A stretch of 47,676 nt of DNA, taken from NCBI GenBank assembly GCA_002698785.1, contig PAAG01000021.1, positions 1-47,676 on the forward strand, written 5' to 3'. Made by a program: the position numbers and the translations under genes. The first letter of the stretch is position 1, and each line of letters opens with the position of its first letter. Of this stretch, positions 11,712 through 18,534 are shown one piece after another. The stretch is from Verrucomicrobiales bacterium (GTDB lineage Bacteria > Verrucomicrobiota > Verrucomicrobiia > Verrucomicrobiales > DEV007). Below the pieces are notes generated by a model that did no database searches, had not been told where the DNA came from, and was given only the letters and a program-made list of their open reading frames with translations.

Positions 11712-12120
11712 GGGGAGCGAATGTATTTCTCACCCCGTAGACGGTCAAACGGGAAAGAAAATTACTCATGGAGCCGATGGAATGCTCAAAAAAGGCCTAT
11801 ACCGGCCGCATTCGGATAATCTCGACATTCCTTAAGTGTTTTGTTAGTATGTGTGCGCGGCTGAGGCAACTTGGAAAGCCAAACTCCAAACGGTCCAATT
11901 TCCCCAAAATGCACGAAAAATCCCGAAATGACGGTCGAAAAAACAAGATATGTAACTGATTATCAATGCATTATTTGGAAAATGATGAAAAACGAAAACC
12001 TCCATCATTTCCCATCATTTTGTGAAAACAGCATCAGCAGGTAGGCGTAGACTACTCAGGGGCCCTACATTGATTTGAGCCACATTGTGGGGCACCTTCC
12101 CGAAACCCTCGATAGCCCTT
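11712..12120. other. 409-bp intergenic region with repeated CATCATTT boxes
   Basis: No convincing gene. It is AT-rich and holds AAAATGATG (11979-11987), which can pair perfectly with either CATCATTT (12003-12010) or CATCATTTT (12013-12021). The pieces TTGTTAGTAT (about 11835) and AAAAACGAAAA followed by TCATTTCC (about 11988-12012) also occur in the same order in the R repeats near 45 kb and 46.4 kb. It may be a decayed R copy. It also holds the promoter region of the divergent flanking genes. Confidence 0.4.
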
Positions 12121-14538
12121 ATGAATTTCACCCTTGGTCCCAAAGCGGTATTCGCATGTATATTTTTGGCTATCTCTGTGTTCGGCATGAATACGGAAGC
12201 CGCCGAGACATTCCGAAAGGACAAGCTCAGAGAGATTGATCGAACGATCCAATCAGCCATAGACGAGGCGACCATTCCCGGAGCTGTTCTCTGGCTCGAG
12301 TCGAATGGAGAAGTCTACCTCCGAAGCTATGGAAACCGCATGGTAGTACCTTCGATCGAAAAAATGACCGAAGACACCATTTTCGATGTGGCGAGTCTTA
12401 GCAAAGTCATCGCTACAACACCGTCCATTCTTCACCTCTGGGAACTGGGTAAGCTCGATCTCGACGCCCCCGTTTCAGAATACATTCCTGAATTTGCCGG
12501 GGGCGGAGTGCGCCCCGAACCGAAAGATCCCGAGGTAGTGCCTGAAGACCGGGAAAAGATCACGGTCAGACATCTGCTCACCCACCAGAGTGGACTACCT
12601 CCTGGAATTTATTTGAGCGAACAGGATTTCTGGGGCCACGAAGAAGGCGTTCGTCGCGCCGCAACAATCGGGCTCATAGAAAGACCTGGGACCCGCTTTC
12701 GCTACAGTGATGTAAACTTCATCCTTCTCGGAGAAATCGTCTGGCGAATTTCCGGCCTCACTGTCGATCAATATGCGGAAAGGCATTTCTTCACTCCGAT
12801 GGAAATGTCGAGCACGGGCTACCTTCCCTCACCGTCAAGCGTAAGGCGGATCGCACCAACGACGGAGATAACGGAATACGGATTAGTTCGCGGAGAAGTG
12901 CACGATCCGACTGCTCGCCGTATGCAGGGCGTAGCAGGTCATGCCGGAGTTTTCTCCACAGCGAAGGACATCGCCACCTACGTCCGTATGTGGCTCAACG
13001 GTGGCGTTCACGTGGATCGACAGATCCTGCTTCCGGAAACGATCGAGGAGGCAACAGAAAACCACATGCCTGCCGCCTTGGAGATCACCCGTGGTCTGGG
13101 CTGGGATATCGGTTCTCCCTATGCGTATCAGAGAGGGGAGAAATTTCCCCGAGACGGATTCGGACATACTGGTTGGACGGGAACTTCGATCTGGGCGGAT
13201 CCAGGGAAGAACACATTCGTGATCCTTCTCACCAACCGCAACCATCCAAAGGAAGGAACAAGTGTGAAGCCGCTTAGGATAAAGGTCGGGACTCTTGCCG
13301 CCGAGGCTGTCGGATATTCCACAATGGTTCCTCTTTCTACCGCCGAGAACTCAGAAGATTCTTTCTCATCGATGCAGGTAGCTGCAGGAGGTGATCACGT
13401 CGTTCTCAACGGCATCGATGCCCTGGAGAAGAGTGAGTATAAGGCATTGTCAGGATTGAAGATCGGGCTCGTAACGAATCAGACGGGCATCAGCCGGACA
13501 CGCAGATCCACTATCGACTTACTTGCCAATGCGCCCGGCGTGGGATTGAAGGCACTCTTTTCTCCCGAACACGGAATTCGAGGGGCACTCGAAGAAGACT
13601 CCATCGACGATGGTGTCGACGACACTACGGGGCTTCCCATATATAGCCTCTACAAATCTGCAAACCGCAAGCCTACCAAGAAACAATTGGAAGGTCTGGA
13701 TGCTCTCGTTTTCGATATTCAGGACATTGGTTGCCGTTTTTACACCTATGTCTCGACCATGGGGCTTGCTCTTGAGTCAGCTGCGGAAAATGATCTGAAG
13801 TTTTTTGTTCTCGATCGAGTCAATCCTATCGGTGGAGTTGTTGTCGACGGACCTGTTCGTTCAGGAGAAGGTAACGACTTTGTCGCGTTTCATGACATTC
13901 CCGTCCAACACGGAATGACCGTTGGCGAACTCGCCCGAATGTTTAACGAAGAGCGGGGGATCAACGCAGACCTCACCGTCGTAAAGGTGGAAGGCTGGGA
14001 CCCTTCCGAGAAATTCGACGATACCGGGCTCCCTTGGGTAAACCCTTCTCCAAATATGCGCAGCCTCACCCAGGCCATGCTTTATCCCGGAGTCGGGCTG
14101 GTTGAATTTACCAACCTTTCCGTCGGTCGCGGAACCAGCACACCTTTTGAGCACATTGGCTCTCCGTGGATTCACGATGGGCGACTCGCAGCTCGAATGA
14201 CGGAAGAAGAAATCGCAGGGTTGCTTGTCCTTCCAACCCAGTTCACCCCAAACACCAGTGTCTATGGTGGTGAGGACTGTGCCGGAGTTCGGTTTGTCAT
14301 TACGGATCGAGACTCGTTTCGTCCGCTCGACTTGGGGATTGGACTTATGCGAGCCATTTACGAATACCATCCCGATACATTTACCTTGGCAGAGAAAGGT
14401 AATGTTCTTCTCCGGCATCAACCAACCCTGGAGGCGGTGATCTCTGGAAAGAGTCGTGAGGAGATCCGTGAAGGCTGGCAACCAGAGCTCGATCGCTTCT
14501 TGAAACGGCGCGAAGCTTTCTTACTGTATCCAAGGTAA
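12121..14538 (+). CDS. Fusion of beta-lactamase-fold serine hydrolase (AmiE-like) and NamZ/DUF1343 exo-muramidase domain
   Basis: An 805-residue exported protein from the ATG at 12121, which gives a signal peptide ending near NTEAAE. Residues about 35-410 are a class C beta-lactamase-type hydrolase: SxxK as S92-L-S-K95 in [12 protein letters not shown], YxN as YSDVN, and an HTG box in GHTGWTGTS. Residues about 425-805 are DUF1343/Nam[66 protein letters not shown] and [10 protein letters not shown]. NamZ removes terminal N-acetylmuramate from peptidoglycan fragments. In Bacillus subtilis namZ, nagZ and amiE form one murein-recovery operon, so this fusion should cut peptide and sugar bonds of the same fragment. 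The stop overlaps the longest queH reading (TAATG). Confidence 0.88.
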
Positions 14539-15299: not shown

Positions 15300-17438
15300 C
15301 TATTGCTCAACTCCGATATGCGTTTTCACCCAGGGCAGCTTGGAGTGGAATGTCAGGAAAGCTGGCAAAATGAGAAGGTCGCAGATGAGGGCGAACCACA
15401 TTGTTAGTCCCGATAATAGTGCAAAGTAGATGGTAGGTTGGAAACTTCCGAAAACTGCGACCCAGAACCCCAGGGAAAGTGCGATGGTCGTGGATACGAG
15501 AGCAAAGCCGGTTGAGTGAGTCGTCTTTTGAATCGCGTCTCCATGAGTTGAGTCCCGATATTTTCGATACGCCGACAGATAGTGGATCGTGTCATCGACG
15601 GCGATGCCGATGGCGATACTCGCAATCATCGCAGTGCCCGTGCTCAGCGCAATGCCAAAGAACGCCATGATTGCTCCCGTCAGGAATAGCGGAACAACAT
15701 TAGGGATGATCGCGAGGAAAATGTAAGAAGGAGAACGAAAAACAATTCCGATCGAAATCAAAATCAGGACAATGGCGATCGCAAAACTTTTGAGCTGAGA
15801 CGCCACGAGATGAGTCGCTTCAGTGATGATGCGATAATAGCTCCCCGTTTCTTTAACTTCGTAATCCTCACCGAGCTCGGACTTGGCAGCATCGCGAATG
15901 CCTTCAACAATTGCCTTCCCTCGAGCCGTCCCGACGGAATCTGTTTGAACAGTCAGTCGAACTTTAGTCTCGTCACTGCTCAGGTAATTGCTCAAGTCAA
16001 TCATGGGCAGAACCTGCGACAAGGGAGGGCGCGGCATTCCCTCAGGGAAAGGTAGTGCAGCTAGAAAATCCGTGATGCTGATCGTATTGCGGACATAATC
16101 GAGATCATGAACCTCGGTTTCGAATGCTTCGATTTTCTCGATTTCGGAGAAGCTGGAAATCGGTTCTCCGTCGACGCGAGAAATCAGAAGTTCGATCGTT
16201 GAGGTTCCTGTTAGGTTGTCCTCGATATACATGGTGTCTTGGACCAGTTCCGATTTCTTTCCCAGGAAGCTGAGTAGATCGGTATCGGTTTCGATCTGTC
16301 TCATTCCATAGATCCCGATCGCGGTCAGAATGACCGACAGCGTGATCACGAGGATAGGATGCTTCACCGGAATGCGGGCCGCAAAATCCAGCATGTGAGA
16401 GAAAGGACCTGTATCCTTCAGCGCATGTTTTTCGGGAGGAGGTGGTGTGAGAAATGTCAGACCGACGGAGAGCCCAAAGACGCCGAGGAAATAAGAGATT
16501 GCTACTCCCAGCGCCGCAAACATTCCAAAGAGGCGCACTGCTGGAGTGGGACTCAACGTCAGGCTTAGGAAACCGATAGCAGTTGTCGTGGATGCAAAAA
16601 GACAGGGGCGATAGAGGGCGCGTACGGCATCGTGAATGCGCTTGAACTTCTTCATCTCGTCATTGCGCAACCAGTCGAGATAAATGTGGATCGTCGTGGC
16701 GACCGACAGGGTCATGATCACTGGGGGGAGCAGGGAAGTGATCATGTTGAGCGTATGACCCAGCATGGAGTAAATCCCAAGTGTCCAACAGATTGTAATC
16801 GCCGAGACGAGCAGTGGGAAAAGCATTCCTGAAAAACGTCGCGTAATCAGAAGAAGCACGATCCCGAGCACGAGCATGGAAAGCGGGGCGAAGATCTTCT
16901 GGTCTTTTCGCACGAGAACGCCGGAACTGTATTTCTGGAGCGGCAAGCCCGTAACGGCGATCCTCGTTTCCGGAGTGTCCACTTCTGCGACGATTTGGTT
17001 CACCGTTTCAACGAGGTCGGACAAAGCATCGCCATCGTCCATGCTTTCGTCCAGCAGCACTCGTAACCCCGCGGTCTCGCCGTCATTCGAAATTAAGAGG
17101 CCCTCATCCATCGATGAGACTTCGAAATCTCGTTCAACGAGGCTGACCACTTTATTGACACCCTTTACCTCACTGAATCGATCAACGAGGTCCCGGAGGA
17201 ATGTGCGGCCATCTTCTCCCAGGATGTCGTCCATTGTGACGGCGATGAATAGGAAGTCTTTCTCACGGAAGAGCTCGTGAAACTCCTCTTCGACTACGTC
17301 TTGGGCGGCGTCATCCGCCTGCATCGACCGATTGGCCTTGTCGATTTTCAGCTGCAGACAAAAGTATCCCGTCAACGCCGTGAACAGCGCGACAACGACC
17401 ACAAATGAGAATCGGTGCCGTTCAAGAAACCACTGCAT
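15300..17438 (-). CDS. RND/MMPL-family lipid exporter
   Basis: A 712-residue membrane protein with two repeats of one helix, a large extracytoplasmic loop, then five helices: the MMPL/Patched-like RND plan (SSD-type). It begins MQWFLERHRFSFVVVVALF. Key membrane motifs are VATTIHIYLDWL in repeat one and GIAVDDTIHYLSAYRKYRDS in repeat two, the latter carrying the paired acidic residues typical of proton-driven RND pumps. Members export hydrophobic lipids and polyketides. The ATG at 17438 overlaps the end of the type III PKS gene by 17 bp, so translation is probably coupled and the pump likely handles the PKS product. Confidence 0.88.
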   Translation of the reverse strand: MQWFLERHRFSFVVVVALFTALTGYFCLQLKIDKANRSMQADDAAQDVVEEEFHELFREKDFLFIAVTMDDILGEDGRTFLRDLVDRFSEVKGVNKVVSLVERDFEVSSMDEGLLISNDGETAGLRVLLDESMDDGDALSDLVETVNQIVAEVDTPETRIAVTGLPLQKYSSGVLVRKDQKIFAPLSMLVLGIVLLLITRRFSGMLFPLLVSAITICWTLGIYSMLGHTLNMITSLLPPVIMTLSVATTIHIYLDWLRNDEMKKFKRIHDAVRALYRPCLFASTTTAIGFLSLTLSPTPAVRLFGMFAALGVAISYFLGVFGLSVGLTFLTPPPPEKHALKDTGPFSHMLDFAARIPVKHPILVITLSVILTAIGIYGMRQIETDTDLLSFLGKKSELVQDTMYIEDNLTGTSTIELLISRVDGEPISSFSEIEKIEAFETEVHDLDYVRNTISITDFLAALPFPEGMPRPPLSQVLPMIDLSNYLSSDETKVRLTVQTDSVGTARGKAIVEGIRDAAKSELGEDYEVKETGSYYRIITEATHLVASQLKSFAIAIVLILISIGIVFRSPSYIFLAIIPNVVPLFLTGAIMAFFGIALSTGTAMIASIAIGIAVDDTIHYLSAYRKYRDSTHGDAIQKTTHSTGFALVSTTIALSLGFWVAVFGSFQPTIYFALLSGLTMWFALICDLLILPAFLTFHSKLPWVKTHIGVEQ

Positions 17439-18534
17439 TCAATAGGGATGCTTCAATCGTTAGGCCGGGACCAAATGCGATTGCGCAGACCTTTTGGCCA
17501 TTGTTCACCGAGCCGCTTTCCAGAATCTCACGAAGTACGAACAAAACAGTAGCACTACTCATGTTGCCATACTCAGACAAAACTTTTCGGGAAGGGGCAA
17601 CCTGCGAGGGATCTAGTTCCAGACTCTCCTGAATCTTGTCTACGATTGCCCTTCCTCCGGGGTGCACTGCCCAGACATCGATTTCATCCGGGCTTGCATC
17701 GCAGCTTTCAAAAATTCCACTCACAATACCGTCGATTTCGGCGCCAATGATCCGTGCGACATATTTGGAGAGAACGATATTAAATCCTCGGTCACCGATG
17801 TCCCAAGCCATGTCAGCACTGCCATCGCGGGTGAGGCGTGATGCAAAGTGATTGATTTCGTATGCCTTGGATCCATCCACTGGAGGAGTTCCCGAAACGA
17901 TCGCTGCGGCGGCCCCATCGGAAAAAACAGAGTTTGCGACGATGGAGTCCAAGTCGTCTTTCACCTGGAGGTGTAAGCTGCAAAGTTCCAGGCAGATGAT
18001 CAACACATTGGCGTTGGGATCGGCTGCACAGAACTGATCGGCCATCTTGAGCGCAGGGAACGCAGCGTAGCATCCCATAAAGCCCAAATTGTATCTCTCA
18101 ACCGCAGGATTGAGATCGAGAGATTCGATGACGAGCAGGTCTGGTCCTGGGTTGAAAAAGCCGGTGCAGGAAACGGTGATAACATGCGTGATGTCTTCTC
18201 GCTCCACCCCGGGACAGTTATCGATCGCATTGCGGGCGATCTCTGGAATCATCTTCTTTGCCGCGTCGACATAGATTTCATTCCGGTCTCCGGTGGTGGG
18301 CTCCTTCATGACGCCGTCCACCCTTTGGAAGAGCATTGAATCGGCACCTTCGTTCCCGAAGTCAGCGATCACACTGTGTCTTCTCTCGATACCAGAATCA
18401 GAATAGACCTTTCGAATATACCGCTTTGATTTTTCACTTCCTGACCAGGATTCCATCACGGAACTCGCGAAAGCCTGAGTATAAGATGTTTCCGGAACGA
18501 GTGTCTCAATGTGTCGAATGAAGCCCAAAACCAA
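17422..18534 (-). CDS. Type III polyketide synthase (chalcone/stilbene synthase family)
   Basis: A 370-residue protein, near the usual family length. The catalytic triad is complete: C155 in GFMGCYAAFPAL, H291 in VWAVHPGGRAI and N324 in LSEYGNMSSATV. The C-terminus AFGPGLTIEASLL is the family GFGPG loop. Such enzymes extend an acyl-CoA with malonyl units to alkylpyrones, alkylresorcinols or related lipids. No ATG fits the N-terminus: an in-frame stop lies upstream and the first usable start is TTG at 18534, with no Shine-Dalgarno, suggesting weak or controlled translation. It forms an operon with the RND exporter. A large hairpin lies 25-65 bp upstream. Confidence 0.92.
   Translation of the reverse strand: MVLGFIRHIETLVPETSYTQAFASSVMESWSGSEKSKRYIRKVYSDSGIERRHSVIADFGNEGADSMLFQRVDGVMKEPTTGDRNEIYVDAAKKMIPEIARNAIDNCPGVEREDITHVITVSCTGFFNPGPDLLVIESLDLNPAVERYNLGFMGCYAAFPALKMADQFCAADPNANVLIICLELCSLHLQVKDDLDSIVANSVFSDGAAAAIVSGTPPVDGSKAYEINHFASRLTRDGSADMAWDIGDRGFNIVLSKYVARIIGAEIDGIVSGIFESCDASPDEIDVWAVHPGGRAIVDKIQESLELDPSQVAPSRKVLSEYGNMSSATVLFVLREILESGSVNNGQKVCAIAFGPGLTIEASLLNAVVS

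What the first reader, a model, noticed from the sequence alone, without database searches (positions are those of the whole stretch)
12121..14538. AmiE-like amidase fused to NamZ exo-muramidase
Separate genes of one murein-recovery operon in Bacillus subtilis (amiE, namZ) correspond to two domains of one exported protein here. A single enzyme could remove peptide and MurNAc from the same cell-wall fragment. Both active-site sets appear intact.
Basis: partly seen in the sequence, partly recalled or inferred. Interest (0 to 1): 0.55.

Follow-up and report, generated by a model that had tools for sequence, protein, structure and literature searches.

The report
Fused two-domain cell-wall salvage enzyme
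One probably exported bacterial protein joins a serine hydrolase of the kind found in cell-wall salvage operons to an enzyme family that clips off the sugar MurNAc; the fusion is real, old and shared by several phyla, so it is a sound but fairly ordinary finding whose exact reactions are untested.

Summary
Window 12121-14538 (+) is one intact 805-codon gene with a signal-like N-terminus, an S12 (beta-lactamase-fold) domain (39-385), a low-confidence linker (409-423) and a complete NamZ domain (448-803). Both motif sets are intact and nearly invariant in 80 fused relatives.

It is not a private oddity. Of 36 genomes searched (own included) 24 have NamZ and 21 of those carry the fusion; Acidobacteriota, Planctomycetota and Pseudomonadota have it too. 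The architecture was tabulated in 2008.

The S12 half groups with S12 genes of murein-salvage loci (YfeW/PBP4B, Thermomicrobium, Deinococcus, haloarchaea), apart from AmpC, AmpH and most own-genome paralogues; support is moderate and depends on long-branch rows. MurQ or NagZ-type genes flank the fusion in 10 of 80 loci, none verrucomicrobial, and not in the window.

Best reading: an exported enzyme that removes the stem peptide (AmiE-type amidase, inferred), then MurNAc (inferred), probably as two flexibly tethered domains. B. subtilis AmiE was not compared and no activity is shown. New member of a known kind.

The parts
12121..14538 (+). Fusion gene: S12 serine hydrolase + NamZ exo-muramidase, 805 aa (longer TTG start possible at 12085)
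12121..12204 (+). Signal-peptide-like N-terminus (residues about 1-28)
   Evidence: sequence by inspection; lower pLDDT with a predicted helix 7-21
12235..13275 (+). S12 / beta-lactamase-fold domain, residues 39-385
   Evidence: PF00144; fold match Z up to 41 to S12-fold enzymes
12394..12405 (+). S92-L-S-K95, catalytic SxxK motif
   Evidence: 81 of 81 rows keep S and K
12703..12717 (+). Y195-S-D-V-N199 second S12 motif
   Evidence: Y and D in 81 of 81 rows
13165..13173 (+). H349-T-G351 third S12 motif, within GHTGWTG
13276..13461 (+). Interdomain stretch (residues 386-447) with a low-confidence linker at 409-423
13462..14067 (+). NamZ_N domain, residues 448-649
   Evidence: PF07075
13564..13575 (+). 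P482-E-H-G485, conserved NamZ motif
   Evidence: E, H and G in 81 of 81 rows (rows partly selected on this peptide)
14077..14529 (+). NamZ_C domain, residues 653-803
   Evidence: PF20732
14538..15281 (+). QueH (epoxyqueuosine reductase) gene, directly downstream; neighbour only, found beside the fusion in 4 of the 80 named loci (L040-L043, the closest relatives; cut by the contig end in L041)

Best explanation
The gene encodes an exported, bifunctional murein-salvage enzyme. The N-terminal S12 domain, of the group that sits in MurNAc-salvage operons (PBP4B/YfeW and, by inference, B. subtilis AmiE), forms a serine acyl-enzyme and removes the stem peptide from MurNAc. The C-terminal NamZ domain then releases the peptide-free, non-reducing-end MurNAc from GlcNAc. 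The freed MurNAc would be taken up and used in the cytoplasm: by a fused kinase-MurQ etherase in 16 of 36 genomes searched, and possibly by an AmgK-like kinase in the window's own genome. The two domains are most likely flexibly tethered and work in turn, not by channelling. SHOWN: one gene, both complete domains, intact motifs, conservation of the fusion, grouping of both halves (moderate for the S12 half), MurQ/NagZ-type neighbours in other phyla. INFERRED: export, amidase specificity, order of cleavage, fate of MurNAc.
For: Domains and motifs. AlphaFold model with mean pLDDT 91.4; the NamZ half matches solved DUF1343 structures 4k05 (Z 48.6, rmsd 2.3 over 374) and 4jja (Z 39.5). S12 trees of 42 rows: with domain-trimmed rows, all 6 S12 from murein-salvage loci and all 23 fused rows used fall in a 34-row group (90/95) without AmpC, AmpH or the 6 own-genome paralogues; with whole outside proteins, a 35-row group (94/97) leaves out 7 of these 8; without the three longest paralogue rows the split is 96/91. 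Motifs D-x-AS-x-[TS]K, Y[ST][DC], [HN]D and H-x-G[FWY]TG are all present in the 34 rows of the first group, and the full set is in none of the 8 outside rows. S12 relatives in salvage context: E. coli murQ-murP-yfeW, Deinococcus AnmK-MurQ-S12, Thermomicrobium nagA-S12-AnmK-hexosaminidase-BadF-MurQ, haloarchaeal AnmK / S12 / NamZ / NagZ clusters. Around the fusion itself: MurQ in 5 and a NagZ-type GH3 in 7 of 80 named loci, union 10. NamZ tree: the 26 fused rows used fall in one group (95/92) with one unfused member nested.
Against: No activity data. The window's neighbours (FG-GAP, trpG-like, QueH, RND transporter, PKS-like) show no salvage link, none of the 10 MurQ/NagZ-flanked loci is verrucomicrobial, and no background rate for such neighbours was measured. 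Curated PBP4B cut-off not reached (166.5 of 385 bits). The own-genome paralogue L147, outside the group, also hits PBP4B (82.7 bits, third best), above the Deinococcus (75.8) and haloarchaeal (61.2) members, so that hit alone does not define the group. With whole proteins the very long paralogue row L150 falls inside the group, and several other rows are on long branches. Closest solved S12-fold structures are esterases and an acyltransferase, none a muropeptide amidase; B. subtilis AmiE was not compared. Own genome: NagZ without a visible signal peptide, MurQ-like protein only under cut-off (132.5 of 168 and 101.9 of 302 bits), no AnmK, so the downstream route is uncertain. The fusion and the kinase-MurQ gene do not strictly co-occur: 12 of 21 fused genomes have it, as do 4 of the other 15.
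Confidence: 0.66

Rival explanations
1. The S12 domain is a DD-carboxypeptidase/endopeptidase (PBP4B-like) that trims D-Ala or cross-links, not the amide between MurNAc and L-Ala; the NamZ domain works separately.
For: Best curated match is PBP4B; a DD-carboxypeptidase activity for E. coli pbp4B is in print (title of reference 19, seen; paper not read). YfeW lies inside the same group in the S12 trees.
Against: Within that group YfeW and Priestia PBP4B pair with each other and not with the fused rows, and the score is far under the PBP4B cut-off. Pairing with an exo-muramidase makes most sense if the peptide is removed whole (inference; NamZ's need for peptide-free ends is recalled, not read).
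Confidence: 0.18
2. The S12 domain is an esterase or acts on another envelope glycan or lipid, and only the NamZ half serves murein.
For: Closest solved S12-fold structures by sequence and fold include EstU1 (4ivi), EstG (7uda, 7u1b) and other esterases. EstG, a C. crescentus enzyme, was reported to act on a cyclic glucose hexamer (passage in PMC11389396), so this fold does not fix the substrate.
Against: Murein-salvage linkage of the group and of the fusion in other phyla; H-T-G motif kept; no AmiE-type solved structure turned up among the listed matches, so structural nearness to esterases says little.
Confidence: 0.11
3. The NamZ half has drifted to another glycan, or one half is a non-catalytic targeting domain.
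For: Two NamZ of Tannerella are reported to differ in specificity (title only, reference list).
Against: Both motif sets are nearly invariant across 81 rows.
Confidence: 0.05

Closest known systems
B. subtilis AmiE (YbbE) and NamZ (YbbC), genes of one cluster
   Same: Same two enzyme families (NamZ = YbbC recalled), in B. subtilis in one cluster with nagZ and murQRP
   Different: Fused here S12-first, no mur genes alongside; AmiE and B. subtilis NamZ sequences not compared
S12-DUF1343 fusion proteins (DDPept-DUF1343, YP_439122.1, Table 3 of PMC2605481; genes on NZ_CP013419.1 and NZ_CP151111.1)
   Same: Same domain pair; the two plasmid proteins are 37.0 and 37.5% identical over 100 and 98% of the query
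   Different: The plasmid copies follow a polysaccharide deacetylase and a putative glycoside hydrolase (DUF4015 in L138)
RmNag3-type GH3-S12 fusions (PMC6987092)
   Same: S12 fused to an exo-acting N-acetylhexosaminidase (passages); the S12 of a Phocaeicola GH3-S12 protein falls in the same S12 group
   Different: Partner is GH3, placed N-terminally; here it is NamZ, placed C-terminally
E. coli YfeW (PBP4B)
   Same: Nearest curated S12 family; lies in the murQP operon
   Different: Stand-alone; the window protein scores 166.5 against the 385 cut-off

Membership tests
NamZ (DUF1343) exo-beta-N-acetylmuramidase | NamZ_N and NamZ_C domains above curated cut-offs | tested here: met
   265.6 bits (cut-off 26.9) and 142.2 bits (cut-off 25)
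NamZ (DUF1343) exo-beta-N-acetylmuramidase | Fold of solved DUF1343 proteins | tested here: met
   4k05 Z 48.6, rmsd 2.3 over 374 residues; 4jja Z 39.5
NamZ (DUF1343) exo-beta-N-acetylmuramidase | Conserved PEHG motif (its catalytic role is recalled) | tested here: met
   rows partly selected on this peptide
NamZ (DUF1343) exo-beta-N-acetylmuramidase | Releases terminal MurNAc | not testable with these tools
   needs enzyme assay
AmiE-type S12 MurNAc-L-Ala amidase | S12 fold with SxxK, Y-x-D/N and K/H-T-G motifs | tested here: met
AmiE-type S12 MurNAc-L-Ala amidase | Groups with B. subtilis AmiE | not tested
   AmiE sequence not obtained; the domain groups with S12 of other murein-salvage loci (90/95, 94/97, 96/91)
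AmiE-type S12 MurNAc-L-Ala amidase | Gene next to MurNAc-salvage genes | tested here: inconclusive
   not in the window; 10 of 80 fused loci, all in other phyla
AmiE-type S12 MurNAc-L-Ala amidase | Amidase activity | not testable with these tools
   needs enzyme assay
PBP4B equivalog (NF002968) | Score over 385 bits | tested here: not met
   166.5 bits
Class C beta-lactamase equivalog (NF033085) | Score over 415 bits | tested here: not met
   50 bits
Family VIII carboxylesterase | W-x-G in place of K/H-T-G (recalled) | tested here: not met
   H349-T-G351 kept; H 80 of 81 and G 81 of 81 rows

The most novel reading that the evidence does not exclude
In the window's order MurNAc salvage is run by two bifunctional proteins: an exported S12-NamZ fusion that strips peptide and MurNAc from wall fragments, and in many relatives a cytoplasmic kinase-MurQ etherase fusion that takes MurNAc to GlcNAc-6P. 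The exported fusion would be a single old event shared by Verrucomicrobiota, Acidobacteriota, Planctomycetota and some Pseudomonadota, defining an extracytoplasmic MurNAc-release route different from the AmpG/anhydro-MurNAc route of enterobacteria.
Probability: 0.33. Interest if true: 0.45.

Novelty: new member of a known kind. Interest (0 to 1): 0.28.

Why it matters
It gives a Rosetta-stone link between a poorly characterised S12 group and the exo-muramidase NamZ, and one construct in which amidase-then-muramidase order and any benefit of tethering can be tested. It also points to how little-studied phyla may recover MurNAc without AnmK.

Tried and rejected
Beta-lactamase reading: rejected, since class C models score far below cut-off and AmpC lies outside the S12 group. 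Assembly or frame artefact: rejected by 20 other genomes with the same fusion. L003 (1099-aa frame) and L025 (577-aa frame) were first taken as other NamZ fusions; no S12 half was found in the parts of these frames that searched, and reading the frames suggests stand-alone NamZ genes inside over-long open frames. Canonical downstream route in the own genome: AnmK in 0 of 36 genomes; MurQ-like SIS protein only under cut-off; AmgK-like kinase far under its cut-off (59.1 of 550 bits). First structure (16 rows, mean pLDDT 77.8, pTM 0.54) was replaced by one with 89 rows. Promoter and terminator counts (2 and 6) were within the spread of the shuffles (means 2.7 and 4.4). Distance between the two active sites was not computed (no coordinates at hand, pTM 0.59).

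S12 tree checked again: the rows had been trimmed to the stretch matched by a model of the fused domain, which cut the last motif off AmpC, AmpH and some paralogues (so the motif table could not test it there). I repeated it with whole outside proteins: the group then holds 35 rows at 94/97 and takes in paralogue L150, on a branch of 5.81; leaving out the three longest paralogues (L149, L150, L151) gives 96/91. The fused rows alone as one side of a branch have 93/89, 70/86 and 66/82 in the three trees, so a single origin is only weakly supported by the S12 half. My confidence was lowered slightly for this (0.68 to 0.66; novel case 0.35 to 0.33).

Print: the NamZ founding paper is not in the library, so what it says about fusions is unknown to me. 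Searches were seen as listings; of the five papers naming DUF1343 I opened two and left three unopened. In what I opened, the architecture appears only in the 2008 table.

In the phylum sample (288 genomes, 170 with NamZ, listing truncated) I counted 12 listed matches with a frame of 700 aa or more; 9 of the 10 NamZ-bearing genomes of the window's order in that sample are among them; frame length is only a proxy. The S12 trees used 20 of the 80 named fused loci, the window and 2 plasmid fusions; the NamZ tree the same plus 3 fused genes of the order.

Full report
WHAT IS THERE. Window 12121-14538 (+) is one uninterrupted gene of 805 codons. Pfam gives Beta-lactamase (S12) at 39-385, NamZ_N at 448-649 and NamZ_C at 653-803, all far above cut-off. 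The N-terminus looks like a signal peptide by eye. With an alignment of 89 sequences AlphaFold2 gives mean pLDDT 91.4; residues 409-423, between the domains, are under 50, and pTM is 0.59, so each domain is well modelled but their mutual placement is not. The NamZ half matches the solved DUF1343 proteins 4k05 (Z 48.6) and 4jja (39.5); the S12 half matches an acyltransferase, esterases and class C beta-lactamases at Z about 33-41 among the 50 entries shown. The motifs S92xxK95, Y195-S-D197, H349TG351 and PEHG 482-485 are nearly invariant in 81 aligned rows.

HOW COMMON. The own genome has a second, stand-alone NamZ without a visible signal peptide. Of 36 genomes searched (the own one, its genus and order), 24 have NamZ and 21 of those carry the fusion, one copy cut by a contig end; in the other 3 only stand-alone NamZ was found. 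A scan of named genomes kept 80 loci, all fused S12-first, from records named Verrucomicrobiota, Acidobacteriota, Planctomycetota and one gammaproteobacterial MAG among others; these were the best-scoring matches of a capped scan, so this is no prevalence figure. Plasmid records add Burkholderia and Cupriavidus fusions. In three haloarchaeal plasmids the same two families lie as separate genes with one gene between them. Across a sample of the phylum the fusion looks like a minority of the listed NamZ genes, concentrated in the window's order (by frame length only, listing truncated).

WHICH S12. In a tree of 42 S12 domains, all 23 fused and all six salvage-locus S12 rows fall into a group of 34 (90/95) apart from E. 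coli AmpC, AmpH and six S12 paralogues of the own genome. Those rows had been trimmed, so I repeated it with whole outside proteins: 35 rows at 94/97, leaving out 7 of the 8 and taking in the very long paralogue L150; without the three longest paralogues the split is 96/91. Gemmatirosa, Streptomyces, Enterococcus and Priestia S12 and a Phocaeicola GH3-S12 also fall inside, so the group is wider than salvage loci. Members other than L150 share D-x-AS-x-[TS]K, Y[ST][DC], [HN]D and H-x-G[FWY]TG; none of the 8 outside rows has the full set. NCBIfam agrees in part: PBP4B is the best hit for the window and for all eight other members scanned, whereas the six paralogues hit AcmB, class C, LipL or 3-sucCA synthase models best. 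But the paralogue L147 scores 82.7 bits on PBP4B, more than the Deinococcus (75.8) and haloarchaeal (61.2) members. Of the proteins scanned, the PBP4B cut-off is reached only by YfeW and the Priestia protein.

WHICH CONTEXT. Relatives of the S12 half sit in murQ-murP-yfeW, AnmK-MurQ-S12 and nagA-S12-AnmK-hexosaminidase-BadF-MurQ. Around the fusion itself, MurQ lies within the fetched flanks (up to 6 kb each side) in 5 of 80 loci and a NagZ-type GH3 in 7 of 80, union 10, all in acidobacterial or planctomycete records; no background rate was measured. In the window there is no such link; QueH follows the fusion in 4 of the 80, the nearest relatives.

THE REST OF THE PATHWAY. AnmK was found in 0 of 36 genomes, a GH3 domain in 36 of 36, and a single-frame BadF-type kinase plus MurQ in 16 of 36 (domains checked on one). 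That gene is in 12 of the 21 fused genomes and 4 of the other 15, so the association is loose. In the own genome I found only a MurQ-like SIS protein below cut-off, beside a gene with two ABC-ATPase stretches, and an AmgK-like kinase below cut-off. Its NagZ has no visible signal peptide. The assembly is 95.9% complete, so absences may be gaps.

ORIGIN. The NamZ halves of 26 fused rows form one group (95/92) with a single unfused member nested in it, which fits one old fusion with a later loss of the S12 half. The S12 half does not contradict this but supports it only weakly (fused rows on one side of a branch at 93/89, 70/86 and 66/82). The spread over phyla then needs vertical inheritance plus transfer; I did not separate these.

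MECHANISM. Inferred order: the S12 serine is acylated by the MurNAc-bound stem peptide and releases it; the NamZ domain then removes the freed non-reducing MurNAc. That NamZ works with AmiE and NagZ in B. subtilis, and wants peptide-free MurNAc ends, is recalled. The gene order amiE-nagZ-ybbC and AmiE's amidase activity come from passages of PMC5061867. A low-confidence linker argues for sequential action by tethered domains. A DD-peptidase or esterase role for the S12 half is not excluded; EstG, a close fold match, was reported to act on a cyclic glucan.

IN PRINT. A 2008 survey lists DDPept-DUF1343 for one protein (Table 3 passage) and does not discuss it in its section on S12 architectures (read in full). 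The counterpart GH3 N-acetylglucosaminidase-S12 is characterised as RmNag3 (passages); I saw no assay of its S12 half in those passages. No paper on the NamZ-S12 fusion turned up in the listings of searches; the NamZ founding paper is not held.

VERDICT. Correct observation, sound family-level reading, untested chemistry, common architecture: a new member of a known kind, of modest interest.

Noticed in passing
L136 527-10382 (Haladaptatus halobius), L137 438-13227 (Halorussus halophilus), L146 1-17727 (Halorussus vallis): Haloarchaeal plasmids carry what looks like a murein-catabolism cluster: AnmK, HAD hydrolase, PBP4B-group S12, a protein without a Pfam hit (checked in L136), NamZ, NagZ, GH18 (L136, L146), a peptidoglycan-recognition protein (L146) and ABC transporter genes (L137, L146), in organisms not known to make murein (recalled)..
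   Followed up: partly
L131 4708-6561 and 15 further genomes: Single-frame fusion of a BadF-type (GlcNAc/MurNAc kinase-like) domain with MurQ etherase, open frames of 602-801 aa, in 16 of 36 genomes searched; not found in the window's own genome.
   Followed up: partly
L129 5980-7536: Own-genome GKRP/MurQ-like SIS protein of 518 aa directly upstream of a gene with two ABC-ATPase stretches; substrate unknown.
   Followed up: partly
L036 6889-7986: Second, stand-alone NamZ in the own genome with no visible signal peptide, so perhaps cytoplasmic.
   Followed up: partly
L169 3259-4254: AmgK-like kinase in the own genome (59.1 bits, cut-off 550), a possible alternative MurNAc outlet.
   Followed up: partly
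L138 6003-10376, L139 5878-10316: Polysaccharide deacetylase, putative glycoside hydrolase (DUF4015 in L138) and S12-NamZ fusion as neighbouring genes on Burkholderia and Cupriavidus plasmids.
   Followed up: no
L119 8360-9409; L104 9026-10069; L094 and L101 (one contig): A second NamZ match beside the fusion, or two fusions on one contig: perhaps local duplication.
   Followed up: no
window 15300-18534 (-): RND/MMPL-family exporter gene overlapping a type III PKS / DpgA-like synthase gene: possible small lipid or polyketide locus.
   Followed up: no
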